Source: a virus. Taken from it: a DNA stretch of 58,038 nt. The stretch is from positions 1 to 58,038 of the IMG/VR virus record IMGVR_UViG_3300018428_000023; one strand, 5' to 3'. This document shows positions 2,913 through 57,090 of this stretch, in pieces. The notes under the pieces were generated by a model, which saw nothing but the letters and a program-made list of their open reading frames with translations, was not told where the DNA came from and did not search any database. Each line of letters begins with the position of its first letter. Within the stretch, counting starts at the first letter, position 1. The translations under genes and the position numbers were made by a program.

Positions 2913-2927
2913 AAAGAATATAAACTA

Positions 2928-31287: not shown

Positions 31288-31291
31288 GAAA

Positions 31292-39400: not shown

Positions 39401-42097
39401 AGATGTTAATATTTCATCTAGATCTGCATCTGAAAATTCTGCTGATGATGCAGCTCTAACTGTTTCTTTAACAAAGTTGAAGATTGCCGTATCAACCAAG
39501 CCCGTTTCTGTTTGGCTACCTCTCAATCTTTGTAACTTAGCTTGAAGTTGAAGAACTAGGTTAGCTTGTGTTTTAGATAAAGGTGTATTATCTATAGTTG
39601 ATAGTTCAATCAAACCATTAAAGGTTTGAGCATATCTATCAAAGTTTAATACATAGTTAATATATTCAGGCTTACCTATATTTTCTGAATCTAATATGTA
39701 ATCGGTAAATTGTTGCAAGTCTTTAATACCTTGTCTGATTACACGAGTATACTCTGCTCTAATTGCTTGTGGTCCTTGAGTAACTGCAACTTCTATACTA
39801 GCAATGGTATCATTGATTGCAGATATTGTACCTTCTTTAGTCATGTCAAGTACAAGACCACCTTTTAGTTTTCTTAAAGCATCCCTTCTTTTTACAAGAC
39901 CAGCTGAGTATTCTTCTAAAGCACCAAGGTAGTAATTGACCTCAGCATTAGAATTATTATTGTTTTCAGATTGAGCTTCATCTCCGCTTAGTTCTTCTTC
40001 TGCCATATTGTAATCAGGAGAAGTTTTTCTAGCATCATTGATTCTATCTTGTTGTTCTTGATCAAGGTTCTCTGGAATAATCTTGTCAACAACTTCTTCC
40101 ATTTGAGAAACACTATGACGGTAAATACCTTCTATCTGATAACCACCTTTCCAAACTTTCTTACCTTTTGCATCTTTCTCAATATCAACTTTAATATGGA
40201 AAGTGCTTATTGCATTAGGACCATCGGCTACAGTGTAACCCATGTTCTGTAACATTCTTCTATAGATTGCTATCTGTAGGTTGTGTTGTGCTTTTGTACT
40301 CAGTGCTTCTTTGTCTGATTTTTGTTTTACCAAAGAATCATCTTGCAAAGGATATGGTTTCTCATATCTATCGGGATCTGTCTTTAGATAGTTTTGACTG
40401 GTCTTTAAGTCAAGAACTTTTATTTTACCATCCGGTGTAATTAAAAGTATATCACCAGTACCTGCTATACCCCCATAGGTCTTACCATTGATTTCAATTG
40501 TTTGGTTATCAAACAATACAACTTGCGGTATAGCAACAGAACCATCAGAAGTAAGAGAATCTAAATGAGATTGAAGATCAACATACACTTGTTCAACCTG
40601 CTCTTTAGAAAGTTTAGTTATACCTTCTATATCCTCCACTAAAGTCTTTGATACAACGGCATTTAAGATTGCGTCAAAGTCATTACCCACAGCAAGGTTA
40701 ATTTCATTATCTTCTTTGTTGAGCATCTCTCCTTTGATTGCTCTGGTTGTAGAATAAAACTCTTCACCTGTTTCTATATCATAGTAGGTGTGGTCTTCTT
40801 CATTTAGCACAACCAGGCTTGCAGAATCAAAAAGCTCAGGATTTTTGCTTGCACTAAAACCGGTTATTTCTTTATCGGTTTCTTTAGCTACATTAAGGAG
40901 TTTAGCAATAAGATCTTTTTGAACATCTGTTGTTGCCTGACCCATTGCAACATCCATTGCTGCTTTGGTTTTGTCATCAAGAGAGTATCTTACTTGCCTA
41001 TCTGCTTTAAACTCAAACTTAAATTTAATATCATCTGTGTTTAAAAGCTTTGCAATATCAGAAAGACTTGATGTCTCTTTGATGTCACTTGTCTTAATTG
41101 CAAGATCTCTGTTTGTAATAAACTTATGTAAGTCTTTTAAGATATTAGAAAACCATTCTAAGAACTCTTTCACCTTTTGTAAGAACCCCTTGGTTGGTTG
41201 AGTTTCATACTCTTGTCTAAAGTGTCTTGTTAATGCTTGAGTAACCAGTTCAAGATCTCTATGCATCTGATTAAACCCTCTATCATTACTATAAGCTTGG
41301 TTGATTTGTTGTCTTAACTCACCAAAAGTTTCTTTAGCTTCTCTTAATAGGCCATCAAATAATGCTCTGTTTTCTTTATACATAGCATCTGTAAATGGGT
41401 GTAGCACTTCTTCTATTGCTACATCACCATTAATTCTTTGACCTATAATATATGCTTGACCATTTGCATAAAAAGATTTTACTTCAGAAAAAGGAATTTT
41501 AGCTCTCTGGTCTGCCGGCAAGCTGTTATATATTTTCTCCGCTTCTACTCTAGTTACATTGTTGATTGTAACTTGAGGAAACATTCTATTCAAATGATTT
41601 AGAATTGCTCTAACAGGACCTTTAGCATCTTCACGTGCTTCAGGAATAACATCTCTCATTGTAAACAAGTCTTCATTGATTACAATTTTGTATGTATTAT
41701 CTGTTTCTACAAATTCAACCATCTGCCTTGGACCATAAGAAATATTATTCTGATCAAGGAAAGCTTGTATTCTCTGAATATTATTTTGAGCAATCTTCTT
41801 GTTTGATATTCTAGTTCCCTTTGCTGTATTATTTACATAGATAACATCATTGTATCTACTGGCTCGTCTTGTACCAATAATATTCTTTTCAAGAGCTTCT
41901 CTAAAATCTAATTTCTTTGCAGATAAAGCAGCCTTCTGATCTTTCAGATAGGTTTTAGCTTGAGCAACAGTTGGTATATCCTCTGTATTATTAATCTCCT
42001 GATAAACATTTATAATGTTATCTGTTTTAATATTTGTACCAAACTCTGCTTGTAGAGCTTTATATTCTGCTGTATTTCTATTTGGACACTTAGCCAT
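36449..42097 (-). CDS. giant virion-associated protein with PD-(D/E)XK nuclease
   Basis: 1882 residues from ATG 42097 (AKCPNRNTAEYKAL); a start at 42112 would overlap the giant gene. Early on, residues about 220-240 contain IEEVLHPF, a zincin-like helix whose first His is replaced by Glu (229-233), so catalytically degenerate. A PD-(D/E)XK core follows: GTGDILLI with Asp549, then VLDLKTS with Asp563 and Lys565, then QIAIYRRML. The rest is mostly helical; near the C-terminus a hydrophobic segment (GEIGLVLTIWALTELLGGVL) suggests membrane penetration. In crAss-like phages such giants are packaged and injected. Its role is probably DNA processing on entry or host DNA degradation. Confidence 0.8.
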   Translation of the reverse strand: MAKCPNRNTAEYKALQAEFGTNIKTDNIINVYQEINNTEDIPTVAQAKTYLKDQKAALSAKKLDFREALEKNIIGTRRASRYNDVIYVNNTAKGTRISNKKIAQNNIQRIQAFLDQNNISYGPRQMVEFVETDNTYKIVINEDLFTMRDVIPEAREDAKGPVRAILNHLNRMFPQVTINNVTRVEAEKIYNSLPADQRAKIPFSEVKSFYANGQAYIIGQRINGDVAIEEVLHPFTDAMYKENRALFDGLLREAKETFGELRQQINQAYSNDRGFNQMHRDLELVTQALTRHFRQEYETQPTKGFLQKVKEFLEWFSNILKDLHKFITNRDLAIKTSDIKETSSLSDIAKLLNTDDIKFKFEFKADRQVRYSLDDKTKAAMDVAMGQATTDVQKDLIAKLLNVAKETDKEITGFSASKNPELFDSASLVVLNEEDHTYYDIETGEEFYSTTRAIKGEMLNKEDNEINLAVGNDFDAILNAVVSKTLVEDIEGITKLSKEQVEQVYVDLQSHLDSLTSDGSVAIPQVVLFDNQTIEINGKTYGGIAGTGDILLITPDGKIKVLDLKTSQNYLKTDPDRYEKPYPLQDDSLVKQKSDKEALSTKAQHNLQIAIYRRMLQNMGYTVADGPNAISTFHIKVDIEKDAKGKKVWKGGYQIEGIYRHSVSQMEEVVDKIIPENLDQEQQDRINDARKTSPDYNMAEEELSGDEAQSENNNNSNAEVNYYLGALEEYSAGLVKRRDALRKLKGGLVLDMTKEGTISAINDTIASIEVAVTQGPQAIRAEYTRVIRQGIKDLQQFTDYILDSENIGKPEYINYVLNFDRYAQTFNGLIELSTIDNTPLSKTQANLVLQLQAKLQRLRGSQTETGLVDTAIFNFVKETVRAASSAEFSDADLDEILTSVRDINDIEYQTGDMATNRDTLLAVLDKIYKYKEQEYLDKAQARENKIRAVAGKLAKLDPSTKPEDLYNFMLEFDEAGLPTGYIVQRLGPQYYNKIKELRDLLFDEDGNRMEYIEKFNEDEATPEELAYNKKLYELKQENARFWRAERGTSEGDIVDGDYHAYTEEFKTLRAKYERPEITASGFVIWKKKRSVDAKSWRKFRQTYGEYKETFFMDKKNGEPTGTLSPGQIWVPYNKYRYAKAQATVNGKKVSMLNEKYDAIMNPAVEDELSIARREFYQFYVETMEELTKKLPPNVMEQMAGRIPTILANKIKREGPVVAKMFAKMKRNVGDFFKETGSYRRVVVNEKGEIANTLPIYYTGNLATEKDLEKIEEKRTLLKTRLDSKAISKTEYRNKMDILDVEEKRLRKKPTRETLNTDLGTSLLKFNTMAENFEVMSTIEDIVTSFIKVSDKREVLAPEAKSDNVVSVLGNAIVSGASKARKMVPVGTRENDLEKNIQKRIKKWARMVFYDNENLTQTALEKMSGLLMGYSSFAYVATNPLGNINNLTIGLLNNTIELMGGRFFKRRAYLQMKKEFNVEQVLAKSVRRTGYILDGKKGYYDPKKPMTKWEGWVDVLRMMDKKTEIRETDQDSYFEKAGSWFYLLNDSFEYNVQTKIGMAMVASHKAVDENGNEVNLYEASTWDSKNQTIVIDPKYKIYDMNGNEVEWNDQYRYKLRNQIREVNKRIHGSYARADRMVMQSHFLGKLAVQFKKWVAPSIKSRMRREQYDENLGWVEGRYRSFTSFFAFAFKNLSDIKNLNKVYAEKLAEDFAREEGINYGHVEQRIKNKITGAYTTMGEIGLVLTIWALTELLGGVLATDDDDGEIEKRLKNLLKYNADRASKELYAFWPVVGWPQAYQLIKNPIASANVLGQFSEAIYSTGQTAVYGLFLDDKEFRKNKEVVYQRGKRKGDLKMSKEWNDVLPFLYTIQRWQNFDQEREFYVK

Positions 42098-42099
42098 AA

Positions 42100-45000
42100 T
42101 TACAATATACAAGATTTAATATTATCTAAAAAGTCTTCGTCACTATCATAGATCACATCTGGATCATTTCTTTGAGCAATAAAATCTTCAAGGTCATTTA
42201 TGTTTTGATCACGTAGCTTTTGTCTAGCTTCTGGATTAGTTTGTACATTCTTATCCCAGAAATCAACAATAGCTGGATACTCTTCTTCTAAGTTTGTTTC
42301 TTCAAGTTGATCAAATAAACTTAAACTTACCGGAGGTCTATCTGAAGCATCAACTCCTTGAGAAGTTACATCTGAAGCATCAACTTCTTCAGAAGTTACA
42401 TCGGCTTCAACTCCACCTCCACCGCCTGGACCATATTCATCAAAGTCTTCTGCAGTAGGACCTAAATCATTTTCTTCAAGCATCTCCATTGTTAGATCAG
42501 ATACCTTAACTAAGTTTTTTTCAACGCCTCCTGGAGCAAATGAATTAAGATTAACGTATACAGTATTACCTATGTACTCAATATCATAACCCATAGTTTT
42601 TGCTTTAGATAAAACAGCTTGTTCTGATACAGGTAAAAAACCTTCTTCAAAACCACCTTCTTTTTCTAATTTTTCAACAAAGGTACGGATATCAGTATAA
42701 GCAGGACGTTCAAATCCACCACCATCAAACATAAAACCAATACCATTTTGGTAGTTAGAACCTTTCATCTTAATCTCTTCATATACACCAGCATTACCAA
42801 TAGACATACCCTCTGAAGAGTTAATTATGTTATCCTCCGTTACCGTAACGGGTGTATAGGTTTCTTTAAGTCTAAAATATCTAACCGTTTTATTTTTCTT
42901 GCCAGTAACAACTTTAAGAACTGCAGGTAATTCTACCACAAAGGTACGCTTACCATTTATGATTATATCTTTTTTAATTACAAAGCCTTTTCTTTCTAGT
43001 TCTCTTATGTTTTTTGCAAGTTTCTTAAATTGATTTTCATTAAATCTGTCACCAAACTTTCTAGTGTTTTGAGTATTTCCACTTCTCTTAAATGGTTTTA
43101 CACCTTTATATATATCAACAATTAATACGTTTTCCTCATTTGTCAAGCTCATTGCAATAGGAGCTACGTTGATTGCTCTTTGTGTTGTACTACCCGTTTC
43201 GGTAAGCACCCCTTTTGTAAGAGAGTAACCAAACTCTTGACGTAATTTTTCCTCAATGTAATTGTAAACATCTTTGCTTGCAGACTTTAATTTCTTAAGT
43301 TGCTTTTTGTCTAATAGTTGTTTAGGGAATACAATCGGTTTACCTGACTCTAATATATCATTAACCTCTGTGTCAAAACGCTCAACAAATGAATCAAGAT
43401 CTTCACTATCAAACATTGTGGTAAGATCATACATTAAAGTTAATGGTAATGCGTTTTCCATTCCTCTAACAGTAGAAGATCCAACTGTACCCAATTGTCT
43501 TGCATTATCAACATAAACATATACCTTATCAGGATTTGCTTCTACAATCTTTTTATTAACCTGACCCGGAAGAACTTCTGTTTCTTCAAATATTTGTTTA
43601 TAGAAAGGTATATTGCTTACTCTATTAAGAAGTATATTATTCTTGTTTGACTGCAAGTATCCAAGGACAAAATCATTTAATAGTTCAGGATAGCTCATAC
43701 CAAACTTAGACTCAAACAAATCTAGTCTATCCTTTTTCATCATATCATGGATATCCTCAATACTTGTACTAAATGTGTCAAGCAATGCTGGAGTAACAGC
43801 TTCAAGTAAAGAACCTGCACCAAACTGCAAACCATCTTTAACCATCATGTAATGTATAAGATGTGTTGCCTCTAGTCTATTATTAGAAAAGATTTCAATA
43901 AATGAATTCTGAATTCTAAGCTTATCAATATCACTTCTCTTACCAAACGTGTTTGATTCTGCCTTATGAATACCAGATTTATTATCAAGATCTCTAGCAT
44001 TCTCATTAAACATAAACTCATTTAAGAAGAAGTTATCAGGATAAATCTTTCTTAACTGATCTACCAATCCATTTATATTTAATGCAGCTCCAGATTGAGG
44101 ATATATAAATGCATTATTCAAAGAACCAAGAGACATTTGTGATCCCTTCTTATCTAAAGAATGCATATATGCTTTAATAGTTAAGTAAGAAAGCAAGTCT
44201 TTACCAATCTTATCTTTTTGTTCTGCGTCTAGTACATAATCATTACTAGTTAAGTTGCGTAGAGTAGCAGAAAGCAATCTATCAAATGCAGGAGTCTTAG
44301 AAACAAATACATTAGGAAGAATAACATTACTAAAATGATTTAGTACTTTAACCATGTTTGCTTGCCATGCATCTGATTTGAATATAGGTCTAACATCTAT
44401 AGGTACAGGTGCACCCTTAAACTCTAGATCTGCAAACTCTTTATCAGATAATCCAACACCTAGATTTTTTATCTCTGTAAGTTTTTGATTTACGTCTGCA
44501 AAAGTTCTACCTGGTCCCTTACTAATATTCATAACGCTACTCATATCGGATAAGAAGCTCTTCACGTTATGAGCAGCTATAAATTGTTTGAGTATAGAGT
44601 ATATAGCAGACGCTTCTTCAAAATCCATTTCTGGGTTAACTACTAAATCGTCTCCTTTTCTGATTTGTTCTTTTAACAGTTCATCTGAAACCTGTACGGT
44701 ATTTGTTCTAATTCCAGCATCTGCAAAATCCAATTCTAAAGTTTTAATTATAGATTGAATTCTTGTAGCAATACCAGGATCTGTTGCTCTTCTTTTGTTA
44801 TTAGCAGCAAAGTATTCTTCTCTAATTATAGGATGGTTAACCAAAAGAATAGAAGTCTTAATTGGTACACCTAATTTAGTAAGAGTAGTAACCACAGCAA
44901 GAGCATCTCTATTCAAACCAAGCTTAGCTGCAAGACGTTCTTTAGCGTTATCTGTCATTGCTGTAATCAATGCTGAAATAATAAACTGAGTTCTATTCCC

Positions 45001-48000
45001 TTGCGTTTCTTTACCGTCTTTGGCTAGTCTTTCATATTGCTCATTAAACTTATTGTATCTAACACCATTAAATTCAATTTGAGGAATTGTTTGACCGCCA
45101 ACAACTTTACTACGGATTTCAATATTATATTCTCCTAATAGGTTTAAGTATAAGTTTGGTAGTACGGCAGCACCAATTGCACCGGCACCTTCTTTATTAT
45201 TCTTAAATGCTCTTCCTTTACCAAATAGGTTGTCTACATCTATACCTTCTTCTTCAACCAATTGAGCTAGTTCTGGCAATTCTTTTTGAATATCCTCCCA
45301 TACATCAGTTAATGGTGTAAGTACAGCAGGGTCATAAGCAATAGGATTTTCTCCATCTTTTCTTGCAACCGTATTACCTTCATTACCCCACAAAGCAAAC
45401 TTATAATCTAATAATTGATTGTTTAATGCTGCCTCATATGGATAACCAAACTTATCTCTATAAGCAACAAACTCTTCTACTGTTGTTGGCAAGCCTAAAA
45501 CTTTCAATGAAGTAGTAATTCCTTTACCAATAAGTCTTGCTTGTAAATCAGTATATTGCCCTTCTCGTCTTAATCTTCTCTTACCTTTTTCAAGAGCTTT
45601 TGCATATACAGATGATGGAGAGTTTATTTCTTTTCCAACATAGTGTATGTAGTCATCAAACTGTTCTTGATCAGTTCTTGTGGTATCACCATACTCAATG
45701 AACTTACCATTTTTAATATACCACTGTTTCATTTGAGTGTATACCTTATCAATATCAAAGTCAGCTCCTGATATTTCAATAAGTTCTTTTGAGAATATTG
45801 CAGTGGAACCATATGATGATGGTAAGAAGTCAACAACCTTTGTAGCTAATGCAGAGTGTTTATCCTGTGAAGGAATACGTACAGCAAACATTTTAGCAAA
45901 TGCGTCTGGCATAGGCTTACCTGTTTCCTCTATCATCTCCATAATTTGTTCAGAGAATGCAGGCATAATAGATTCCGTGTATCTTACCCCAGTAAAGTTT
46001 CCATCTTGATCATACTCTTTAAGATTGTGTCTTAGTTCATCTCTAACAATAACACCTTTACCATTTGATCTTTCAATTGCATCTGCTAATCCTACAAGAT
46101 TGCCCTCAGAGTCTATGTCAATTTCTATTGGTAATGGATTGCTATTATAAACTTTATCTCTAATGACTTCAAACTTATCTGGAACACCGTTTTCATCTAC
46201 AGAGAAAACACGTCTTATAACCTTCACACCACTATCAGACATAAGAGCTAAAGCATCTCCGGCTACTTTTTCTGACATTGTTTCTTTGGTAAAGTATGAT
46301 AAGAATAGTTGTTCAAACTTATCAATTACCATAGGGTTATTCAAATCATATTGACCACTTGGATCAAAGAACTCAATGACATTACTAGAGGCCTGACTTG
46401 CTTTAAGACCTTCTTGAGCAAATTGTAAAAAGTCTCTTAACTCTATTGTTAAAGACCCCAGCTTTCTACTATCATCTAATGATCTCATTGCAGTTTCTAA
46501 ACTGAAATCAGCAATAAGATTCACCTTATTATGATATTTAAGATTTAGTCTAGCAGCTGTTCCTCTATTATAGAGTTCTCTTAGTTCACCTAAAGTTTTA
46601 GATACATAACCATCTAAAGTTTTAATCATCACCTCTACGGTATCTACCTGTTCTGAAGTAATTAAACTTCTTAGCTGTGTTGGATCTGTAATCTTTTGTT
46701 TATTAGAAGGGTTCACCAATTGCAATCCAATAAATCTAGCATTAAGCATTGTGTGCGGTAATGCTTGAGCATTAGGATTAAACTGACCAAACGCTGCTTC
46801 ATTGCTAACAACATTTGGTTTCATCATTTTACTTGCACTAGCTGGTGCAGCCATTGCTATTGTTTGATCTCCATCAGCTTCAATCTTTTCAAGCTTCAGC
46901 CTTAAGTTATGTAGCTCTTCATATTGAGCTTTGGCTGTTCCATCTTTTCTTGTCGTAAGTTCTGGAGTTAAAACAACTGCAGACATTTTAAGGAATGTTT
47001 GACCATCACCATAAACAAGTTTTAGTGAGTTAAATACACTTCCTTGTTTGATATGACCACCAGCAGCATAATATTCTTTTGGTGTTACCGTTTCACCTCT
47101 TTCTAATTTATTTAATAGTTCTGCTTTATCTTGTGTAAGCTCTGCAAAACCAAATAGCATATGACGCAATGCTTTGGTAGTAATATAAACCTGAGCATCT
47201 GTTCTCTCACCTTGACCACCAGAATACTTTTTATTAAATAAAGTATCACTAAATGTGACAAGAGATATATTTTCAGTTGCGTGATAAACACCACGACTTT
47301 CATCAATAACAGGTGTGTAAGCACTCTTATATGATGCATTTTGCATCTTAGCTCTTTTAACCTTATCAACAGAATCCTTTAAAGATACAGCTTGATCACC
47401 CAGTAGTAATTGATTAATTGCTTTTGTGTTTAACCAATCATTAAAGAAGATCTGCATTAAGTTATAATCTTCATTATCTCTAACAAGATTTAACTGTTCC
47501 ATTGCAGCATCACCTTGTGCTACACCATTGTCATCAGTAATACCATTTAATATATCTGAAGAAATTAAATCTTTAACACGTAAGTTATCCAGTTCTTGAG
47601 CAAATCTTTCATACTCTGACATCAATCTAGTTTTAAGCAAGTCTTTAAAATCACTTACCGTTACAGATGATTCATTAAGCATTCCAATTGCTTCTTCTAA
47701 TGAAATGTCAGGATTATTTATTGCTATTTGTTCTAACTCTTCTTTAAAATCAAACTCTTGTTGAGTAGCTATTTCTTCTTGGAATTGATCATAAGGAACA
47801 AGTTCATAACCAAATCTGGTCTTTTTCCCTTCCAAGAAATCCTTCATTACTTTAGTCTCAACATATAGTGTAGTGTCACCAACATTTACAGCAAAGTTAA
47901 ATTGTTTGGATTTTTCTAGTTGAACCGCATCCCCCATTGATTTAACAATGTTAGATATATTGGTGCTATCAACTTTTGTTTGACCCAACGCTCTTAAAAC

Positions 48001-51000
48001 AAAAACACCCTCTTGTTTTCCAGATCTAACTGTAACATTTGCTCTTGTGTTTTTTAGCGTTAAACCTATTGTCTTAGCCTGAGCATCACTAACATATACA
48101 GTTTTTTGCGTTCCTTCTAATACTCTATTTCCAATTTCTGAAGTAAACTTGGGATCTTTAGCATCAACTCTGGTTTCTTCTTCTTTTGTTGTTTTGAGTA
48201 AACTTGCTGTATCATTAAACTGATAAGCCCTACCTTCATTATCAGTGAGGACACCATTCTTAGCATTGTATCCTTCTATTGGTACTTTATCTTCATCAGC
48301 TTTGCTTGATTCTCTTTGAATTCTTTCAAACTCTCTTCTAAGTTCTTCAAAGAATAAATTAACAGTAGGTTCTGTAATTGTAACTTGACCACTTGCATCA
48401 AATTCAACAGTCTTAATAATAGGTAAACTAAGTAAATCACCAGTATTAGATGCTTCAATAACTCTAATAAGAACAGGAGCCAATGCAGTTTCTACAACCT
48501 CGTTGTCTTCATTTGTAAATACAACAGTTTTATTCTGTTGTTTAAATGCCTGGTAATTAGCTAAATAGGAATTCACTAAAGTTGCAGTAAACTCTGCACC
48601 AGTTAGACTACCATATGTTTTACCATCTTTATCTAGAGCTACTCCACCATTTTCATCTAATGCGTTTTCATCAGTAGATCCCAATGCGCTTTCTTTTGTA
48701 CCAGCAATTCTAAGAACACTTAACCTTTCTTCTTCTGACAACTGCATAAAAGCAGGACTGTTCAAAAGAATATTGGTTAGATTATATCCTTCCTGACGTT
48801 GTCTTAAATCTTTAAGGAAGCTTGCATCATTTAATTCTTGTACCATTTTTAGATGATACGTTGGCATTTGGTGAGCATAAACAAAATTACCCTCTGCATT
48901 TAAGAATACACTTTGTCCAATTGTCTCATCAAACAAGGCATTATTCTTTGCAAGCAACTGCAATCTAGATTTAATACCGCCTTTTCTTGTAAACAAGTAA
49001 GCTGATTTTCTTCTTGATGTTTTATTTAGCTGTAGTTGTTTTGTAAACTCTACGATTGTATCTTTACTAATACCCTCAGCTTGTTTGTTACTTTCAACTA
49101 AAGATTGTTGATACGGAGTTCTGTTTTGAATGTTCTTAGCAATAGTAAATTCAATGTAAGCGGGAGATAGTTTTATACCTACAGTCTCATATATATCATT
49201 AGATATCTGAGTAGCAACAGATGAAAGCTCAGAGTCTTCCATTTCTTCCATAGTTTCCAAGTAAGGTAATAAGCTTTCAAGAGCATCTACTGCATTGAGC
49301 ATGTCAACTTCACTTTCCTTGATAGCTTTAAATCTTTCATTATGTGACTGTTTCCATACATCAATCTGATTAGCTGCATCGTCTCTATTAGCTGCATTGT
49401 ACAACAATAGTTTTCTACCTTGAACGCCTCTTTTTGTATTAACGTGAGCAAATAAATAATCTACTCTAAAGTTTTCAAGGCCTTTATACAACTCATTGAA
49501 GAATACACGGTTTGTGATGCTATCAAGTATTTCTTCTCTTGTTCCAGTTAATACAATCTCTTCTGATGTACCCAATGTTCTAAAGATCTTATCTACAACA
49601 GCTGCTGTTTGTCTGTTACCTTTAGAAAATGAAAGCATTGCTCTAAGAATACTAATCTCATCTGTTAGATTTTTTACAGACTTAAGAAGACCATTATAAG
49701 CACTCTGATAATCTACAGGAATAAATATTGCACCCTTACCGTCTAGTAATTCTGCATTACCAAACTCATCAGTTGCTTCTATCTTTGTTGTACCTATAAA
49801 TGCTCTAAATGCAACAGGCAAGCTAGAGAAACCACCAATCATTGATTGATCAGTATTCCAATCACCAACACCTCTTAAACCTTGATCATATTCTATTTCC
49901 TCATTTGCGTACTCCTCATCTTTTATTTGTCTATCAAATAAAGAAATATATTGAGCAACTGCATCGTATGTATTTTTCTCATACTCTGCTTTCTTAATTG
50001 TCTTTTCTACGGTTTCTTCACCAATCACACCACCCAATGCAGTGTAAATCTTGATCATCTTTTCAATTTGATCTCCAGACTTATTGCTATTGTGATCTGC
50101 CATAGGATCATAGAGTTCTCTAAAATCCTCAATAACTCTCATAACAAGTTCTTGTCTAGTTTCTTGATCTTCTATTTTACCACCCTGTAGTCTTGTTAAG
50201 TATGTACCGGTCATGGTTCTGATTAAAGTATCAGCTGTATCAGGATCAAGATATTTTTTAGCAACACCTCTCTCTAATTCTATTTCATCATAAGCAAGAA
50301 CCTTAAAAGCTTCTAATGTAACACCAGGTTTGAGACCTTGTGTAAACATATTATTCTGTACACCAGCTGATTTATATTTACCAGCATCAATGTTTCTGAA
50401 TAGCTTTTGCAATTCACTAACGCTATATGTACCAAACACATTCTTAATCCACTCAATAAGCCTATTAAAGAATGACTTAATTACAGAACTGGTTTCTGTT
50501 GATCTAGGATTAGTTTTAAACTTCTCAAACTCATCAGCCAAATATTCTTCATAGTACTCTCTCTTGAGTTGCTTTTCAGACATATTCTGATATTTCTCAG
50601 CAGAGTTTTTGAACTTCTGTAGTTCTTCTGCAAGAGTTTTACCTTCTGCTTTAAGCTTAGCTCTTACTTCATTAGCTGCTATAGCCAAGTATTTAGTTTG
50701 CTCTTCTTCACTAAGTAATAATCTAAACACTGCATGGAAGGCTTCATGGTATCTAAAACCTTTTGAACCTACATATACAGTACCACCTATTTCTAGTTGA
50801 CCAGCAAGATTTCTAAGATGCATAGCAAACAAACCAACAGGTATACCATTAGTTTTTAGTCTTTCTGCTACTTCACTAATATCTCTAATCTGTACAAACT
50901 CAGGTAGATTTTCTGCAGCCCAAGTAATAAATGTATCAATATCTTCAACATCTTCAACTGAAAAGTCTTCATCTACAATCTTAGGAGCAAAGCTACTTAA

Positions 51001-54000
51001 GATTCTTTCTCTTTTCTTAAACTCGTCATTAAGTTCATTGTAAGCTTGATCTACACCTCCAACTAAAATGTTGGTTAAATCTTTATTTGTTAGTTCACCA
51101 GCATCAACTTTTGCTTTTAAATCAGCAACGTAAGCCTCTCTAGCAGCTTTTGCTTTATCATATTCATTCTTAGCTTCAACATAATCATCATCCGCTTTAG
51201 TCTGACTTTTTAATTGAGATGCTTTAAACTCAATCATGTTGGTAAGTACATTATACACTATACCTTCTCTTTCAGAAAGAGCTTCACCAACGGCATAGTT
51301 AGCGGCAATAGCATCTAAGAATTCAGAATCAATACCCTCAAAGTTATTTGCTCTAAGTTCTTCAAACTCTTCTTCACTCAGTTCATCAACAGTGGCTGTA
51401 GACAATTGATTATTTAAGTTGTCTAATGTTTCTTGAGCATTTGAGTTATCTGCAACATCATCATCAGCTACACTATCTAGAGCTCTTTGAGCACCAATAT
51501 ATTCTTCTACAGAAGCTTCATCTACAGAGTAATCTAAGTATACATCATAAAATGCTTCAGGATTAATATTAGTGGTTGTAAGGTATCTAATTGCCTGTGC
51601 TGAAATCTCGGTAGGTATATTCTTTCTAAATGAATCAGAGGTTGCTTTTAACTTCAGACTTTTTACAGTTGCATCTGCATTCATTGCAGCATTCAAAGCA
51701 CTCATTAATTTATCAAAAGAATCAACTTCTGTTGCAGATGGGTCTACAAATGCGGAGAATAGCTTTTTATCATTTACTGTATCAATAAGTACTAGCTCTA
51801 AGGCACCACGAGCACTTACCTTTAGCTGAGCATCATAACCAGATTTCAATGAAATATAAAACTTATCATTGAACTCATCATTAAAGGTGTCGTTGTATCC
51901 CTTAGACTTAACTACTTTTTTACCTTCTACAGTATCAACGTTTTCTTCAGCTGTTTTAGCAGCCCGGTCAAGCATCTCTTGTAAAAGTCCATCCTTGCTT
52001 TCCTGATCAAGAGCTGTTGATTTTAATGGAGCAAATACAATGTTGCCGTTAGGTGTTTTAATTACAGCATGATATCTATCAGTTGTTCTATCACTCTTAA
52101 GGTAATCTAGTAATGATGTACCATTCTGTAATTTTTTATTATTGAGTTCAGCTAAAACTTTATTTCTTAATTCCTTATGTTCTTTAGAACCTTTAGGATA
52201 GTTTGTTTTAACATCTATAATTCTATTTCTCTTCTTAGTCTGAGGATCTAATCTATAACTATAGTCAATTACAACAAATTCTCCATCATAAGTATTGTAT
52301 GGTAAAGATTCTACTGCGGTTTGAGTATCACTATAAAGATTACTGTATCCTTGTCTGACACTCAGCATTTCTACAAAATCAGATAAGAACATGTTTTCAT
52401 AGTCATCTGTTCTATCTAAAATTCTTTTTCTTATTATTTGCTGAGTTGCTAAAGCTCTAATGGCTGCAACAGGATCTGAGAAATATTTTTTTGCTTGTTC
52501 TTTTGAAAGAGTAAATGGATTTACTTCTGAACCATCTTCTGCAAAGAATTTTAAATTACCTGAAGGTAACTGAATATCTACAGAGGTGATAGAACCAGAA
52601 TGTCCATTTTCTTTTAATATATTATTTACTTTATTTCTAACTTCAGGATCAGCTATAACAAGTCTAAAGCTGTGAGATTCTTTAGTATACTTAATTAATG
52701 GATTTACCTTACCCTTGGAATCTTTAAAGTCAAATAAATCAGAAGATTCTTCATTAACATCAGCAAATACTCTAATTTCTTGTAGATCTTCTGCAGAAAG
52801 ATTTTGAAGTAATATGGATAATATTGTCTCACCTTCTTCTCTATCAAGAGTATCTGACATTGGATATACACCTAAGATATTAGGAATACCAACTCTTGGC
52901 ATATCTTTAGTAACAAGAGTTTCTGCAAAGGATTCTTCCAACACAGAGAACTTAGACTTAAACTCATCAGCGGTTACTCTAATAGCTGCCTTTTCTCTTT
53001 GTTTAGTTGTTTTGTATTTCTCTATATCTTCCTCTGGTACTATAAATAGAGTACCGTTAGATTCTACTTTAGCAGGTGTACCTAAAGAAACATATCTCTT
53101 ACCTTTCTTATCTACTACAATATCACCATAGTGAAGGGTTTGTCCCGCAAATTCAAAAGGATCTGTTTCTGGTACTGTGCTTAGCAGTGATCTCCAAACT
53201 TTTTTAGCATCTGAAATCTTAGAGTATGATGCTCTAATTTTGCTTTTGTCTATACCAGCTGCTTCATAAAGTTCATCAGAAATCTCTGCACCGTTAGAAA
53301 GCTCAACAATATATTGATCTACAAGCTTGCCCTCTACCTTAGCTTTAGTTTTTCTAATTCTAACTCCAGCACGCTCTTCAACAATCTTATCTTTGCTATT
53401 TGCAGGAGTAGATTGTTTTTGATCAGAAAGAACTTCAAATGATAAACCAACGCTTTCACCAGCATCTATAACTAGTTCACGCACTTGGTCATTATCTTTA
53501 TTAGCCTGGATCCATTCTTTGAATCCTCTCTCTTCTTTAATTACATCAGCTATATCTGGTTTACTCTGATCTAAAGAAGCAACCCATAATGCTTTTAAAT
53601 CTGTAAGAATAGAAGCAATCTTCTGTCCTTCTTTAGACGCACTATATTGTTCAAGAGATAGTCTTTGCTTACCGGTTGCTGTTCTTGCAGCGTTTACACC
53701 TTTATGTATTCTTCTAAGTATACCTTTTGCAAAAGCATTTACAGACTCGTCATTGTTAATGACCTTTGCCGCTTTATCAGAGTCAGGTGCATCTTCATCA
53801 AGTTCTTCTTCTATATCTTCTGCATCTTGTACTTCTTCTGGTTGAGTTAATTTGATATAGTTATTTTTAATTCTTTCAATTTCTATAACTTTATCTGCGT
53901 CAACTGTTTTTTGAACAAGACCGTTTTCTGTGTAAAAAGTTTGAAGAAACTCTGGATTACCCGTTTCTAAAAATAGTTCTGCTTCAGCCGGATCAGGTAC

Positions 54001-57000
54001 AATACCTAATTCATCCAAGTCTTTTAAAACTTGTGCTGCTTCTTCTTTGTTTATTGCAGCATCAATTCTTTCTCTTACCGCTTTTCTATCTTGCTCATAT
54101 TGCTGCTTAAAGAATGCAGCACCTCTTTCTACAATTGATTCAAAGTTGCCAGGGTTAGCCATAAACTCAACAGCTTTATCATAAGCTCTTGTTCTATATT
54201 GCAGTTCACCATAGTCAACCATCTTCTTTAAGACTTCTTTTACTTTAGCTTTATTTGCATAAGCTCCATTTTCTTCTGCTAAGAATTCAATGTAAGCAAC
54301 AAATGCTTTTTCTAAAGTTGATGTTTCAGTTGCCTTAAGAACCTTTTCTCCATTAACTTCTTCAAGCTCACTTGCAATAGTTGTAAGACTACCAATCTTT
54401 CTTTTATCAAATCTAGTTGCACCGTCTTTGCCTTTAGTTGATATTTGATTCTTGGGATCTGTTAATACTTTACGGTAGTTATTAAGAAGTTTAAGTTTCT
54501 TTTCTTTTTTAGCTAACAACTCTGCATCAGCTTCAGATTCTTTTAATGCTATAATTTCTGCTTGCAACAGAGAAATCTCTCTTGATATAGTATCCGGATC
54601 TAAAAGAGTTGTTAGATCGCTTGCACCTAATTTAGATATATTAATACCACCCTCTGTTCCAGGAACATATACCAAATCACTTGATGATAGTTCATTAGCA
54701 ATTGTTTGCATTCTTTTTAAAGAATCTTCAAATGCTGTTCTGGTAAACATTGCTAGGTATCTTGCATGATTCCAAGCTATCTGTTTGTATAATTCATTAT
54801 TATATTCTCTGGATCCTTTTTTATAAGCACTCGCATCATATGGATTTGGGAACTTATCATTAAGCTCATTATAGTTATCCTCTATCTTATATGACTTATC
54901 CAAGTAATCTTGCAATCTCTTTCTGACCTTCCCACTCTTTGCATCTTTAACTGCATTAGGAAAAGCTTGAGCAAGTTCCTCATCTGACAGATTCATTAAA
55001 TCTTTTAGTTGTTTTCTAAAAGGTTCAATCATATCATTCTGCAGCAAAGATTCTAATTGAGCAAACTCTAAGTAATCTTGGTTATCTTTAAAACCAAGAG
55101 GATCTTGCTCATACGCAGATCTTTGTTGTTCTGCTGCAGCTTGTCTTACCTTAACAAAGTTTAAATTTGCTGTATCAAATAAAGAATTTAGTTCTGCTTG
55201 TTGATCCCATTTTTCATTTGCAGTCTTTACAAGAGTGTTTAAAAGATTTTCTCTATCCTGCTTGTTCTTCTGGAACTCCTCCTTATTAAAGACTCTATTA
55301 TATGTATCTGGTACTGTATTATAGATAAGTTTAGATCCACCGCCTAGGATACCCCCGGTAGCAAACCCAGACATAAAGACTTCAAAACCTTGAGCTGAGT
55401 ATTGACTATCAATAGCTTTATTTAATGCAGCATTAAGTGCAACACGGGTATCTGTTGCTGGATCCTTAAGTAGTTCACTGTAGTAATCTACAACACCAAC
55501 TTGCAAACCTTCTTGATAAAGTTCCTGAACACCTTCTGCAATATTAGCCGCAAAGAATCTTAAAGCACCATGAGCACCTTTCATTACATAATCCCCAAAG
55601 CTATATGCATTTTTTCTTTGTTGTCTACCAGCCTTAGTCCAAATACTTCTCTTTACTTCAAAAGGACTTCTTGATATCTTACCATCAACACCAACAGTTT
55701 TCTTAGTTTTAATTATTTTCCTACCAAGTTTACCAGTACTAGCATCAAGAGCTCTTGCCAATCCTCTACTAAAAGGACTAACAACAGCACCTAAACTAAT
55801 TCTGTTAGTTGCATAGATAACAGGGGCATTTGCCCAAGTTGTTGTTGAACTAGCTTTAACTGCTTCTTTTTGAATTGCTGCAAGTTGAGCATCTGTTAAA
55901 TTTACTTGACCTGTTTTATCTCTTTCAATTTGAATACCGTTGGCAATCATGTTATTGTAGACAAAACCTGCTTCAAGACGGCTTTCATCAAGAGCCAAGT
56001 CAATCATTCTAATATCTCTATAGAAACCACCAAAAGCTGCATAGCCTTTACCAAGTTTATGTATTGCAGTACCTACATCTTTTGTTTTATCAAAGCTTCT
56101 TAGAGCTTGCATTGTTTCAGGTAAGAATATTCTTCCTGCTAGATTTTCTCCTGATTTAATTCCTGTCCAAAAATCACGGGCTTTATCAGCATTTTTTAAA
56201 GCACCAACAATAGATCTCCCACCTTTAAAAACTCTACCAACAGCAAAGGCATCTCCCATTCTTGCAAACATTTTTGAAAGTTTTGCCACATTATAAGCAG
56301 TTCTTGCAGTTGCGGCTGCTCCTGTTGCTGCAGCCGCTGCACCAGATGCACCACCTGTGAAAGGTGTTGCAGCAGCTAGTGCTGCCGTTGCTCCCCACAT
56401 TGCAATTTCTTCTGCTGCAATGCTTGACATAATACCTATACTATATGCGGAGTTCAATGCAAATCTGTTAAATGCTGCACCAAAACCTTCACGAGAATCA
56501 TTACCAATTCTCATAGCTTCTGACATTCTTACAGCAGACTCTGTGTCAGCACTTGCATCAAATAAATCAAATACACCTTGATTGTTATTATCAAACATTG
56601 CATCTGTTAAGCCAAAAAAACTAAAGGCAGGAGAAAAGTTTGCTCCAAATTGACTCATTGCTCTACTAAAGTTATCATACCATGTAGAGTTCTCATTGTA
56701 ATAAGTCTCGTTGTCTCTATATGGATTGAAGCCTAAGTCTGCAAATTTTGGATGAGCATAATATCTATCAAAGTTTGTATCTCTAATACTAAATGCTTGC
56801 CTTGGTTTAATTTCTCTTTGGCTAGGTTCATTAAATGTTTGTTTTACATCAAACCACGTATTAGCAACAGGTGCTTGTTTTTGTTGAGGAACTACTTGCG
56901 CAGATCCTGGAATACCATTCATGTAAGGGCTTATGGTAGTAACCATATCAAGATACTCATCATCTACAGTTTGTAGATAATCAGGATCATACCCCAAATC

Positions 57001-57090
57001 TAAAATATCAACAGGTTCATACTCTTTATTTGCAATTGATGAGTTTGTAAAAGTCTGTTGATCTAGTGGTTTGTTTAAATTATTATCCAT
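42100..57090 (-). CDS. 4996-residue giant virion protein containing RNA polymerase
   Basis: The N-terminus (NTNFDRYYAHPKFADLGF-like region, residues about 90-150) resembles those of crAss-like giants. Residues about 210-270 are Ala/Gly-rich hydrophobic, likely membrane-active. Residues 2115-2119 are HEAFH, a zinc metallopeptidase motif. Residues 3777-3781 are DFDID within SGADFDIDKVY, the catalytic metal-binding motif of crAss-like virion RNA polymerases (two-barrel, single-chain type). A 10-residue tandem repeat (VTSEEVDASD) precedes an acidic C-terminus. Combined RNA polymerase, protease and membrane parts suggest an injected multi-enzyme that transcribes early genes. Among the largest proteins for a phage of this kind. 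Confidence 0.85.
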   Translation of the reverse strand: MDNNLNKPLDQQTFTNSSIANKEYEPVDILDLGYDPDYLQTVDDEYLDMVTTISPYMNGIPGSAQVVPQQKQAPVANTWFDVKQTFNEPSQREIKPRQAFSIRDTNFDRYYAHPKFADLGFNPYRDNETYYNENSTWYDNFSRAMSQFGANFSPAFSFFGLTDAMFDNNNQGVFDLFDASADTESAVRMSEAMRIGNDSREGFGAAFNRFALNSAYSIGIMSSIAAEEIAMWGATAALAAATPFTGGASGAAAAATGAAATARTAYNVAKLSKMFARMGDAFAVGRVFKGGRSIVGALKNADKARDFWTGIKSGENLAGRIFLPETMQALRSFDKTKDVGTAIHKLGKGYAAFGGFYRDIRMIDLALDESRLEAGFVYNNMIANGIQIERDKTGQVNLTDAQLAAIQKEAVKASSTTTWANAPVIYATNRISLGAVVSPFSRGLARALDASTGKLGRKIIKTKKTVGVDGKISRSPFEVKRSIWTKAGRQQRKNAYSFGDYVMKGAHGALRFFAANIAEGVQELYQEGLQVGVVDYYSELLKDPATDTRVALNAALNKAIDSQYSAQGFEVFMSGFATGGILGGGSKLIYNTVPDTYNRVFNKEEFQKNKQDRENLLNTLVKTANEKWDQQAELNSLFDTANLNFVKVRQAAAEQQRSAYEQDPLGFKDNQDYLEFAQLESLLQNDMIEPFRKQLKDLMNLSDEELAQAFPNAVKDAKSGKVRKRLQDYLDKSYKIEDNYNELNDKFPNPYDASAYKKGSREYNNELYKQIAWNHARYLAMFTRTAFEDSLKRMQTIANELSSSDLVYVPGTEGGINISKLGASDLTTLLDPDTISREISLLQAEIIALKESEADAELLAKKEKKLKLLNNYRKVLTDPKNQISTKGKDGATRFDKRKIGSLTTIASELEEVNGEKVLKATETSTLEKAFVAYIEFLAEENGAYANKAKVKEVLKKMVDYGELQYRTRAYDKAVEFMANPGNFESIVERGAAFFKQQYEQDRKAVRERIDAAINKEEAAQVLKDLDELGIVPDPAEAELFLETGNPEFLQTFYTENGLVQKTVDADKVIEIERIKNNYIKLTQPEEVQDAEDIEEELDEDAPDSDKAAKVINNDESVNAFAKGILRRIHKGVNAARTATGKQRLSLEQYSASKEGQKIASILTDLKALWVASLDQSKPDIADVIKEERGFKEWIQANKDNDQVRELVIDAGESVGLSFEVLSDQKQSTPANSKDKIVEERAGVRIRKTKAKVEGKLVDQYIVELSNGAEISDELYEAAGIDKSKIRASYSKISDAKKVWRSLLSTVPETDPFEFAGQTLHYGDIVVDKKGKRYVSLGTPAKVESNGTLFIVPEEDIEKYKTTKQREKAAIRVTADEFKSKFSVLEESFAETLVTKDMPRVGIPNILGVYPMSDTLDREEGETILSILLQNLSAEDLQEIRVFADVNEESSDLFDFKDSKGKVNPLIKYTKESHSFRLVIADPEVRNKVNNILKENGHSGSITSVDIQLPSGNLKFFAEDGSEVNPFTLSKEQAKKYFSDPVAAIRALATQQIIRKRILDRTDDYENMFLSDFVEMLSVRQGYSNLYSDTQTAVESLPYNTYDGEFVVIDYSYRLDPQTKKRNRIIDVKTNYPKGSKEHKELRNKVLAELNNKKLQNGTSLLDYLKSDRTTDRYHAVIKTPNGNIVFAPLKSTALDQESKDGLLQEMLDRAAKTAEENVDTVEGKKVVKSKGYNDTFNDEFNDKFYISLKSGYDAQLKVSARGALELVLIDTVNDKKLFSAFVDPSATEVDSFDKLMSALNAAMNADATVKSLKLKATSDSFRKNIPTEISAQAIRYLTTTNINPEAFYDVYLDYSVDEASVEEYIGAQRALDSVADDDVADNSNAQETLDNLNNQLSTATVDELSEEEFEELRANNFEGIDSEFLDAIAANYAVGEALSEREGIVYNVLTNMIEFKASQLKSQTKADDDYVEAKNEYDKAKAAREAYVADLKAKVDAGELTNKDLTNILVGGVDQAYNELNDEFKKRERILSSFAPKIVDEDFSVEDVEDIDTFITWAAENLPEFVQIRDISEVAERLKTNGIPVGLFAMHLRNLAGQLEIGGTVYVGSKGFRYHEAFHAVFRLLLSEEEQTKYLAIAANEVRAKLKAEGKTLAEELQKFKNSAEKYQNMSEKQLKREYYEEYLADEFEKFKTNPRSTETSSVIKSFFNRLIEWIKNVFGTYSVSELQKLFRNIDAGKYKSAGVQNNMFTQGLKPGVTLEAFKVLAYDEIELERGVAKKYLDPDTADTLIRTMTGTYLTRLQGGKIEDQETRQELVMRVIEDFRELYDPMADHNSNKSGDQIEKMIKIYTALGGVIGEETVEKTIKKAEYEKNTYDAVAQYISLFDRQIKDEEYANEEIEYDQGLRGVGDWNTDQSMIGGFSSLPVAFRAFIGTTKIEATDEFGNAELLDGKGAIFIPVDYQSAYNGLLKSVKNLTDEISILRAMLSFSKGNRQTAAVVDKIFRTLGTSEEIVLTGTREEILDSITNRVFFNELYKGLENFRVDYLFAHVNTKRGVQGRKLLLYNAANRDDAANQIDVWKQSHNERFKAIKESEVDMLNAVDALESLLPYLETMEEMEDSELSSVATQISNDIYETVGIKLSPAYIEFTIAKNIQNRTPYQQSLVESNKQAEGISKDTIVEFTKQLQLNKTSRRKSAYLFTRKGGIKSRLQLLAKNNALFDETIGQSVFLNAEGNFVYAHQMPTYHLKMVQELNDASFLKDLRQRQEGYNLTNILLNSPAFMQLSEEERLSVLRIAGTKESALGSTDENALDENGGVALDKDGKTYGSLTGAEFTATLVNSYLANYQAFKQQNKTVVFTNEDNEVVETALAPVLIRVIEASNTGDLLSLPIIKTVEFDASGQVTITEPTVNLFFEELRREFERIQRESSKADEDKVPIEGYNAKNGVLTDNEGRAYQFNDTASLLKTTKEEETRVDAKDPKFTSEIGNRVLEGTQKTVYVSDAQAKTIGLTLKNTRANVTVRSGKQEGVFVLRALGQTKVDSTNISNIVKSMGDAVQLEKSKQFNFAVNVGDTTLYVETKVMKDFLEGKKTRFGYELVPYDQFQEEIATQQEFDFKEELEQIAINNPDISLEEAIGMLNESSVTVSDFKDLLKTRLMSEYERFAQELDNLRVKDLISSDILNGITDDNGVAQGDAAMEQLNLVRDNEDYNLMQIFFNDWLNTKAINQLLLGDQAVSLKDSVDKVKRAKMQNASYKSAYTPVIDESRGVYHATENISLVTFSDTLFNKKYSGGQGERTDAQVYITTKALRHMLFGFAELTQDKAELLNKLERGETVTPKEYYAAGGHIKQGSVFNSLKLVYGDGQTFLKMSAVVLTPELTTRKDGTAKAQYEELHNLRLKLEKIEADGDQTIAMAAPASASKMMKPNVVSNEAAFGQFNPNAQALPHTMLNARFIGLQLVNPSNKQKITDPTQLRSLITSEQVDTVEVMIKTLDGYVSKTLGELRELYNRGTAARLNLKYHNKVNLIADFSLETAMRSLDDSRKLGSLTIELRDFLQFAQEGLKASQASSNVIEFFDPSGQYDLNNPMVIDKFEQLFLSYFTKETMSEKVAGDALALMSDSGVKVIRRVFSVDENGVPDKFEVIRDKVYNSNPLPIEIDIDSEGNLVGLADAIERSNGKGVIVRDELRHNLKEYDQDGNFTGVRYTESIMPAFSEQIMEMIEETGKPMPDAFAKMFAVRIPSQDKHSALATKVVDFLPSSYGSTAIFSKELIEISGADFDIDKVYTQMKQWYIKNGKFIEYGDTTRTDQEQFDDYIHYVGKEINSPSSVYAKALEKGKRRLRREGQYTDLQARLIGKGITTSLKVLGLPTTVEEFVAYRDKFGYPYEAALNNQLLDYKFALWGNEGNTVARKDGENPIAYDPAVLTPLTDVWEDIQKELPELAQLVEEEGIDVDNLFGKGRAFKNNKEGAGAIGAAVLPNLYLNLLGEYNIEIRSKVVGGQTIPQIEFNGVRYNKFNEQYERLAKDGKETQGNRTQFIISALITAMTDNAKERLAAKLGLNRDALAVVTTLTKLGVPIKTSILLVNHPIIREEYFAANNKRRATDPGIATRIQSIIKTLELDFADAGIRTNTVQVSDELLKEQIRKGDDLVVNPEMDFEEASAIYSILKQFIAAHNVKSFLSDMSSVMNISKGPGRTFADVNQKLTEIKNLGVGLSDKEFADLEFKGAPVPIDVRPIFKSDAWQANMVKVLNHFSNVILPNVFVSKTPAFDRLLSATLRNLTSNDYVLDAEQKDKIGKDLLSYLTIKAYMHSLDKKGSQMSLGSLNNAFIYPQSGAALNINGLVDQLRKIYPDNFFLNEFMFNENARDLDNKSGIHKAESNTFGKRSDIDKLRIQNSFIEIFSNNRLEATHLIHYMMVKDGLQFGAGSLLEAVTPALLDTFSTSIEDIHDMMKKDRLDLFESKFGMSYPELLNDFVLGYLQSNKNNILLNRVSNIPFYKQIFEETEVLPGQVNKKIVEANPDKVYVYVDNARQLGTVGSSTVRGMENALPLTLMYDLTTMFDSEDLDSFVERFDTEVNDILESGKPIVFPKQLLDKKQLKKLKSASKDVYNYIEEKLRQEFGYSLTKGVLTETGSTTQRAINVAPIAMSLTNEENVLIVDIYKGVKPFKRSGNTQNTRKFGDRFNENQFKKLAKNIRELERKGFVIKKDIIINGKRTFVVELPAVLKVVTGKKNKTVRYFRLKETYTPVTVTEDNIINSSEGMSIGNAGVYEEIKMKGSNYQNGIGFMFDGGGFERPAYTDIRTFVEKLEKEGGFEEGFLPVSEQAVLSKAKTMGYDIEYIGNTVYVNLNSFAPGGVEKNLVKVSDLTMEMLEENDLGPTAEDFDEYGPGGGGGVEADVTSEEVDASDVTSQGVDASDRPPVSLSLFDQLEETNLEEEYPAIVDFWDKNVQTNPEARQKLRDQNINDLEDFIAQRNDPDVIYDSDEDFLDNIKSCIL
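42341..42400 (-). repeat. 30-bp tandem repeat in the giant gene
   Basis: Two adjacent 30-bp units (42341-42370 and 42371-42400) differ by two bases and encode VTS(E/Q)(E/G)VDASD twice, in a linker before the C-terminal region after a Gly-rich stretch (GPGGGGGVEAD). An in-frame duplication in a flexible linker. Confidence 0.8.

What the first reader, a model, noticed from the sequence alone, without database searches (positions are those of the whole stretch)
42100..57090. 4996-residue fusion of virion RNA polymerase and zincin
The DFDID motif (3777-3781) marks a crAss-like virion RNA polymerase; phi14:2 gp66, the studied case, is about 2180 residues. Here the polymerase is part of a chain more than twice as long with an HEAFH metalloprotease motif at 2115-2119 and a hydrophobic Ala/Gly segment at about 210-270. 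A built-in protease could cut the chain after entry, releasing the polymerase.
Basis: partly seen in the sequence, partly recalled or inferred. Interest (0 to 1): 0.9.

Follow-up and report, generated by a model that had tools for sequence, protein, structure and literature searches.

The report
Giant phage polymerase fused to protease
This gene of an uncultured environmental crAss-like phage encodes a 4,996-residue protein that joins a protease-bearing entry module to the RNA polymerase such phages carry in their particles; the fusion is real and shared by a whole clade, but close counterparts already sit in databases and nothing yet shows that the protease cuts the polymerase free.

Summary
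Confirmed: one uninterrupted 4,996-aa ORF (42100-57090, minus) carries a zincin (HEAFH 2115-2119, conserved Glu 2181/2182) and a crAss-type two-barrel RNA polymerase (DFDID 3777-3781). A profile of window relatives, made without phi14:2, finds phi14:2 gp66 (PDB 6VR4) as its only PDB hit; AlphaFold plus Foldseek agree. The chain is a crAss001 gp47-like entry module with zincin (about 1-2290) joined to a gp50/gp66-like polymerase (about 2290-4996).

The fusion is not unique. Zincin and polymerase share one frame in 77 of the 80 nearest environmental loci (HEAFH in all 78 zincins found) and in three gut Suoliviridae (4,491-4,946 aa). Elsewhere in Crassvirales they are separate genes, on opposite strands in crAss001.

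Some crAss zincins match the N4 virion-polymerase zincin (PHROGs E 8.6e-8), and the family's weak best PDB hits are podophage ejection proteins. I read it as an entry-linked peptidase module attached to unrelated virion polymerases; its substrate is unknown.

The parts
42100..57090 (-). ORF A, 4,996 aa (about 560 kDa): entry module + zincin + two-barrel virion-type RNA polymerase in one chain
   Evidence: fused homologues
50941..57090 (-). A residues 1-2050: N-terminal module, homologous in part to crAss001 gp47 / p-crAss gp45 N-terminal regions; weak Ala/Gly hydrophobic stretch near 218-240
   Evidence: hhalign 93.1% to the gp47-type pair and 62.6% to Intestiviridae for A 1-1000; A 1000-2060 without a convincing match; hydropathy
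50311..50943 (-). A residues 2050-2260: zincin domain
   Evidence: hhalign 98.1% to the crAss001 gp47/Dulem zincin, 96.4% to cr118_1; with the DFDID region among the best-conserved stretches of the chain
50734..50748 (-). HEAFH, A 2115-2119, zinc-binding/catalytic motif
   Evidence: all five residues invariant in 44 sequences; HEAFH in all 78 zincins found in 80 loci
50545..50550 (-). E2181-E2182, candidate third zinc ligand (EExxAD)
   Evidence: both invariant in 44 sequences; one Glu column invariant across 15 crAss zincins
50374..50403 (-). A 2230-2239 LFRNIDAGKY: conserved motif at the zincin/polymerase boundary, in a stretch of low AlphaFold confidence
   Evidence: motif in 41 of 44 fused chains at this position, 41 occurrences in all; pLDDT <50 at A 2230-2235 and 2237-2261
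42103..50223 (-). A residues 2290-4996: gp66/gp50-like RNA polymerase module
   Evidence: AlphaFold model of A 1990-2960 matches 6VR4, Foldseek E 6.7e-11; hhalign 95.4% to crAss001 gp50-type 286-880, 85-92% for the C-terminal part
44794..47490 (-). A residues 3201-4099: RNA polymerase core
   Evidence: invariant columns with 12 Crassvirales references; AlphaFold pLDDT 83.4, pTM 0.83 for A 3190-4380; Foldseek 6VR4 E 5.5e-27, then QDE-1
45748..45762 (-). DFDID, A 3777-3781, catalytic Mg-binding motif
   Evidence: DFDxD invariant in 13 Crassvirales polymerases and present in the environmental relatives
43252..43560 (-). A 4511-4613: lineage-specific insertion, weak DUF7831 match
   Evidence: Pfam E 8.2e-5, below the gathering score; column occupancy about 0.2-0.45 across A 4501-4700
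36449..42112 (-). ORF B, 1,887 aa, next gene, start overlapping A's stop: counterpart of phi14:2 gp65 and of the C-terminal part of p-crAss gp44
   Evidence: blastp to p-crAss gp44 E 2.9e-18 and cr118_1 gp15 E 4e-15; position next to the polymerase as in phi14:2
41396..41413 (-). EEVLHP, B 234-239: degenerate zincin motif (first His replaced by Glu)
   Evidence: EExxH at this site in 76 family members, HEYLHP in two; hhalign 67.9% to intact second zincins
40241..40708 (-). B 469-624: PD-(D/E)XK nuclease-like region
   Evidence: Pfam PDDEXK_1 E 0.047, sub-threshold; motif D...LDLKT by eye; such domains reported in large transcription-block proteins of some crAss-like phages (PMC7886860)
36824..36892 (-). 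B 1741-1763: hydrophobic helix near the C-terminus
   Evidence: similar helix about 100-160 aa before the end of six B-like proteins
57109..58038 (-). ORF C, C-terminal part of the upstream gene, cut by the window end
   Evidence: 76% identical to part of a 1,035-aa ORF in the near relative G001

Best explanation
A is a virion cargo polypeptide of a crAss-like phage in which two proteins that are separate in crAss001 (gp47 and gp50) and phi14:2 (gp67 and gp66) are one chain: an N-terminal entry module ending in a zincin metallopeptidase, then a two-barrel RNA polymerase. Proposed working: the chain is packed in the capsid and threaded out N-terminus first, the entry module and zincin arrive ahead of the polymerase, and the refolded polymerase transcribes the early genes. 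The zincin is kept as an active peptidase that works during or just after entry. I think its main substrate is something other than its own link to the polymerase (another cargo protein, an envelope component or a host protein); cutting that link may also occur. Shown: the fusion, both domain identities, strong conservation of the zincin site, relatedness of crAss zincins to other phage zincins. Inferred from relatives: packaging and early transcription. Inferred only: N-first entry, timing, substrate.
For: Polymerase: 6VR4 is the only PDB hit of a profile of 44 window-clade sequences, E 2.9e-13; AlphaFold/Foldseek E 5.5e-27. Module map by profile-profile comparison and Foldseek of A 1990-2960. 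crAss001 gp45, gp46, gp47, gp49 and gp50 are all found in virions (PMC10172136); phi14:2 gp65, gp66 and gp67 are annotated from MS/MS proteomics. Zincin site invariant in 44 diverse sequences and nearly as conserved as the DFDID region. HExxH retained in eight genomes with a separate zincin gene, so its use does not depend on the fusion. Some crAss zincins hit the N4 virion RNA polymerase family at its HExxH region in an unbiased search of 38,880 families: phi14:2 gp65 8.6e-8, cr127_1 8.6e-7, cr4_1 gp27 3.7e-6. hhalign 94.2-96.8%, falling to 53-75% with HExxH masked; column shuffles at most 1.3%. The family's two best PDB hits are ejection/internal virion proteins, each weak (E 0.011 and 0.028). 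The near relative G001 (about 93% identical over the last 24.5 kb of the window) has the crAss order TerL, portal, MCP, IHF, tail tubular, muzzle, cargo, A, B.
Against: No virion proteomics or biochemistry exists for this clade; packaging is inferred from distant relatives. No substrate is known for any of these zincins. The window's own zincin reaches N4 only through the wider crAss family: the set dominated by its own clade gives just 26.5%, and the single window domain was not among the A4 members matching the N4 family as far as the listing shows (3 of 15). The AlphaFold zincin lacks a confident beta sheet (pLDDT <50 at A 2082-2112), so the fold rests on motif, helices and homology. A 1000-2060 matched nothing convincingly.
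Confidence: 0.55

Rival explanations
1. Self-release: after entry the zincin cuts its own chain near the zincin/polymerase boundary and frees the polymerase.
For: The boundary coincides with natural gene splits in other families and with low-confidence stretches at A 2230-2261 and 2387-2412. A cut near 2330 would give about 261 and 299 kDa, close to the separate crAss001 gp47 (262.5) and gp50 (276.9 kDa; PMC10172136). A conserved motif sits there. phi14:2 vRNAP works as a separate protein (PMC10136315). Proposed in general for such metallopeptidases by PMC5512222.
Against: HExxH is kept where zincin and polymerase are already separate, including on opposite strands in crAss001. The boundary motif is also present in crAss001 gp47, which has no polymerase to release. 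Full-length N4 vRNAP, with a related zincin, is packaged unprocessed (PMC5512222) and is active and undegraded when purified (PMC12633501).
Confidence: 0.28
2. Maturation cleavage: the chain is cut before or during packaging, as suggested for phage P1 DdrB, so virions contain two proteins.
For: P1 DdrB, which carries such a domain, is processed before packaging (PMC5512222).
Against: N4 vRNAP is packaged unprocessed (PMC5512222). crAss001 virion bands reach 270 and >300 kDa (PMC6235969), consistent with uncut gp47, although the text read here does not assign each band.
Confidence: 0.1
3. Structural zincin: the fold is kept for packing, docking to the polymerase or regulating it, not for peptide hydrolysis.
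For: The N4 C-terminal region, of which the zincin is the first part, contacts and inhibits the polymerase (PMC12633501) and is needed for encapsidation (PMC5512222). The neighbouring protein B keeps a degenerate EExxH version of the domain in 76 family members.
Against: Both His, the Glu and the presumed third ligand are invariant in the fused clade and HExxH persists across families; a purely structural domain would be expected to lose them, as B has.
Confidence: 0.12
4. Artefact: two genes joined by an assembly or frame error.
For: None; one relative, L046, is split by a frameshift.
Against: 77 loci from many samples carry the fusion in frame, and gut Suoliviridae genomes do too.
Confidence: 0.01

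Closest known systems
cr118_1 gp14, cr50_1 gp59, cr4_1 gp26 (gut Suoliviridae, 'delta' crAss-like phages)
   Same: One chain of 4,946, 4,774 and 4,491 aa with HEAFH followed by DFDID, then a separate B-like gene
   Different: Local blastp identity to the window chain only 22-28% for cr118_1; different clade in the polymerase tree; cr4_1 has 38 in-frame stop codons under the standard code; the RefSeq names (exonuclease V, DNA helicase, hypothetical) hide the architecture
phi14:2 gp66 (PDB 6VR4), the characterised crAss-like virion RNA polymerase
   Same: Two-barrel polymerase, colinear core, DFDID
   Different: Separate 2,180-aa chain; the upstream gp67 has no detected zincin, and an intact zincin (HEIMH 245) sits instead in the downstream gp65
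crAss001 gp47 + gp50 (virion cargo proteins)
   Same: gp47 = entry module plus HEAFH zincin; gp50 = polymerase with DFDVD; both in virions (PMC10172136)
   Different: Two genes on opposite strands; gp47 transcribed late and gp50 in the middle phase (PMC8375218)
p-crAssphage (Carjivirus) gp45 and gp44
   Same: gp45 already annotated 'RNAP associated protein fused to zincin protease'; gp44 carries the polymerase
   Different: The zincin is in a separate gene from the polymerase; the polymerase is fused instead to the B-like protein
N4 virion RNA polymerase gp50 (Schitoviridae)
   Same: Giant ejected polymerase chain carrying a zincin related to crAss zincins; HExxH kept in 80 of 81 sequences
   Different: The polymerase is of the single-subunit T7-like type and the zincin lies after it, not before it (PMC12633501)

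Membership tests
crAss-like two-barrel virion RNA polymerase (phi14:2 gp66 family) | DxDxD motif in a homologous core | tested here: met
   DFDID; core colinear with 12 references; non-circular profile hit to 6VR4, E 2.9e-13
crAss-like two-barrel virion RNA polymerase (phi14:2 gp66 family) | Double-psi beta-barrel polymerase fold | tested here: met
   AlphaFold model matches 6VR4 (E 5.5e-27), then QDE-1 (weak, E about 0.007); the barrels were not traced one by one
crAss-like two-barrel virion RNA polymerase (phi14:2 gp66 family) | Packaged in the virion; transcribes early genes | not testable with these tools
   Known for relatives only (PMC10172136, PMC10136315)
Zincin metallopeptidase | HExxH plus a third ligand on a later helix | tested here: met
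   HEAFH and EE at 2181-2182 invariant in 44 sequences, on two confident helices; the ligand role of the Glu is inferred
Zincin metallopeptidase | Characteristic beta sheet of the zincin fold | tested here: inconclusive
   The stretch before HEAFH was modelled with pLDDT <50; no zincin among the Foldseek hits listed
Zincin metallopeptidase | Zinc binding and peptide hydrolysis | not testable with these tools
   needs biochemistry
Polyvalent-protein MPTase / N4 vRNAP zincin family (PMC5512222) | Sequence relatedness to the N4 C1 domain | tested here: inconclusive
   Met for some crAss zincins; the window's own copy connects only through them (26.5% for its clade-dominated set)
Self-processing polyprotein | Evidence of cleavage between domains | not testable with these tools
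   No proteomics for this clade; relatives argue against constitutive cleavage (PMC5512222, PMC12633501)
N4-type vRNAP (single-subunit T7-like) | T7-like polymerase core | tested here: not met
   The core is the two-barrel type
Crassvirales | crAss gene order and homologous TerL, portal, MCP and IHF | tested here: met
   Found in the near relative G001; I did not identify these genes in the window itself; TerL 24-27% to the listed crAss-like phages

The most novel reading that the evidence does not exclude
One phage zincin module, linked to crossing the cell envelope rather than to transcription, has become attached to two unrelated giant virion RNA polymerases (N4 type and crAss type) and to podophage ejection proteins, and is switched on by unfolding and refolding during ejection; in the environmental clade it may also release the polymerase.
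Probability: 0.3. Interest if true: 0.8.

Novelty: new member of a known kind. Interest (0 to 1): 0.5.

Why it matters
The fusion ties the zincin-bearing cargo protein, whose role in crAss001 is stated to be unclear (PMC8375218), to the polymerase in a fixed one-to-one ratio, which argues that gp47-type proteins work with the polymerase. The relatedness of crAss and N4 zincins points to a shared step in how short-tailed phages deliver giant proteins, and it can be tested in N4 and crAss001, both of which are cultured.

Tried and rejected
Pfam and PHROGs scans of whole A: nothing above curated cut-offs. Direct tblastn of the N-terminal 2,863 residues against phages: only cr108_1, E 6e-4. The first PDB profile search was circular, since phi14:2 was in the alignment; it was repeated without it. 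Calmodulin hits are taken as chance matches. A zincin profile search of phi14:2 gp67 and gp66 gave nothing. A strong membrane helix in A's N-terminus: rejected. Assembly artefact: rejected. Papers on crAss polyproteins with a protease: none found in the library; the founding papers of 2018 and 2021 are not held, so an earlier statement of the idea there cannot be excluded.

Full report
Observation. The ORF, its length, strand and both motifs are as described. Chance expectation is 0.02 for HExxH and 0.08 for DFDxD in a protein of this composition. The N-terminal hydrophobic segment is weak.

Polymerase. A 3201-4099 aligns end to end with twelve Crassvirales polymerases, with DFDxD and eighteen other columns invariant. 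A profile of 44 window-clade sequences, without phi14:2, finds phi14:2 gp66 (6VR4) as its only PDB hit at E 2.9e-13. The AlphaFold model of A 3190-4380 (mean pLDDT 83.4, pTM 0.83) matches 6VR4 at E 5.5e-27 and then, weakly, the two-barrel enzyme QDE-1.

Module map. Profile-profile comparison places A 1-1000 on the crAss001 gp47 type, the zincin on the gp47 C-terminus, A 2290-3200 on gp50 before the core, and A 4110-4996 on the polymerase C-terminus. Foldseek of A 1990-2960 independently gives 6VR4 at E 6.7e-11. So A corresponds to gp47 plus gp50 of crAss001, or gp67 plus gp66 of phi14:2 by gene order. A 1000-2060 has no convincing match.

How general. The three exceptions are L028 (cut at its 5' end), L042 (no zincin found in its open frames; cause not resolved) and L046 (zincin and polymerase in two frames, while its near relative L047 is intact). 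All 78 zincins found have HEAFH. The 61 fused ORFs closed at both ends run from 4,285 to 5,223 aa, counted from stop to stop. In a tree of the polymerase core the window and twelve sampled environmental relatives form a clade apart from all named families (100/100, midpoint-rooted only). Suoliviridae have the same fusion. cr108_1 (Steigviridae) has zincin plus polymerase up to DxDxD in one ORF and the rest in the next. Intestiviridae, Crevaviridae, crAss001 and Dulem virus 41 keep the zincin in a gene separate from the polymerase: eight genomes, every one with HExxH. phi14:2 has no detected zincin before the polymerase but HEIMH in gp65.

Zincin. In the fused clade both His, the Glu, and two Glu at 2181-2182 are invariant, and A 2101-2150 is among the best-conserved blocks of the chain (0.71, against 0.76 for the DFDID block). 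That speaks for a working site. AlphaFold gives confident helices for HEAFH and the Glu pair but a poor beta part.

Link to N4. In PHROGs the zincins of phi14:2 gp65, cr127_1 and cr4_1 gp27 hit the N4 virion RNA polymerase family at its HExxH region. Profile-profile probability is 94-97%, 53-75% after masking HExxH, at most 1.3% for shuffled columns and at most 9% for reversed columns. The clade-dominated set that includes the window gives only 26.5%, so for the window the link is indirect. The two best PDB hits of the crAss zincin profile are an 'internal virion protein' (9SFN) and the phiM1 ejection protein gp48 (8VB2), E 0.011 and 0.028: suggestive only. The zincin in N4 vRNAP and its possible self-processing were described in 2017 (PMC5512222).

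Does it cut itself? For: the boundary coincides with natural gene splits, low-confidence stretches and a conserved motif, and the predicted fragments would have about the masses of the separate crAss001 proteins. Against: HExxH persists without fusion; the boundary motif is also in crAss001 gp47; N4 vRNAP is packaged whole (PMC5512222) and is undegraded and active as purified protein (PMC12633501). I therefore give release 0.28 and an entry-linked peptidase with another main substrate somewhat more. These are judgements, not measurements.

Novelty. Giant crAss polymerases of up to about 6,000 aa (PMC10136315), vRNAP fusions to large proteins of unknown function (PMC10770324) and a zincin in p-crAss gp45 are on record, and deposited genomes contain the same architecture. 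The environmental clade and the crAss-N4 zincin link may be new; I found no paper on either in the library searched, which is not the whole literature.

Noticed in passing
window 41396-41413 and L025-L104: Protein B, next to A, keeps a degenerate zincin motif EExxH(P) in 76 family members and intact HEYLHP in two (L084, L086); phi14:2 gp65 and cr4_1 gp27 have intact HExxH in the corresponding protein.
   Followed up: partly
window 36824-36892: B and six B-like proteins share a hydrophobic helix about 100-160 residues before the C-terminus, a better membrane-helix candidate than the one noted in A.
   Followed up: partly
L003 6956-21796, L013 6788-21112: RefSeq records call the Suoliviridae fused polymerases 'exonuclease V' and 'DNA helicase'.
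   Followed up: yes
L006 27486-34724 and 23434-27483: DFDVD lies in crAss001 gp50, while PMC8375218 calls gp49 the predicted catalytic subunit.
   Followed up: partly
L015 9188-16711: In cr116_1 a zincin-like stretch (HELIH 635) precedes the polymerase in gp51, while gp47 on the other strand has no match to the zincin profile: the zincin appears to have changed partner.
   Followed up: partly
window 9536-10699: ORF with a DUF2201 putative metallopeptidase domain and a VWA-like domain, a second metallopeptidase-like protein in this genome.
   Followed up: no
window 43252-43560: Insertion with a weak DUF7831 match in the polymerase C-terminal region, absent from most relatives.
   Followed up: no
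window 23607-26993: ORF of 1,128 aa without a Pfam match (E up to 0.001); an ORF of 1,422 aa lies at the corresponding place in G001.
   Followed up: no
window 4090-5046, 7012-7986, 30307-32917: DnaB-type helicase, Toprim primase and ribonucleotide reductase small and large chains: replication and nucleotide genes on the plus strand.
   Followed up: no
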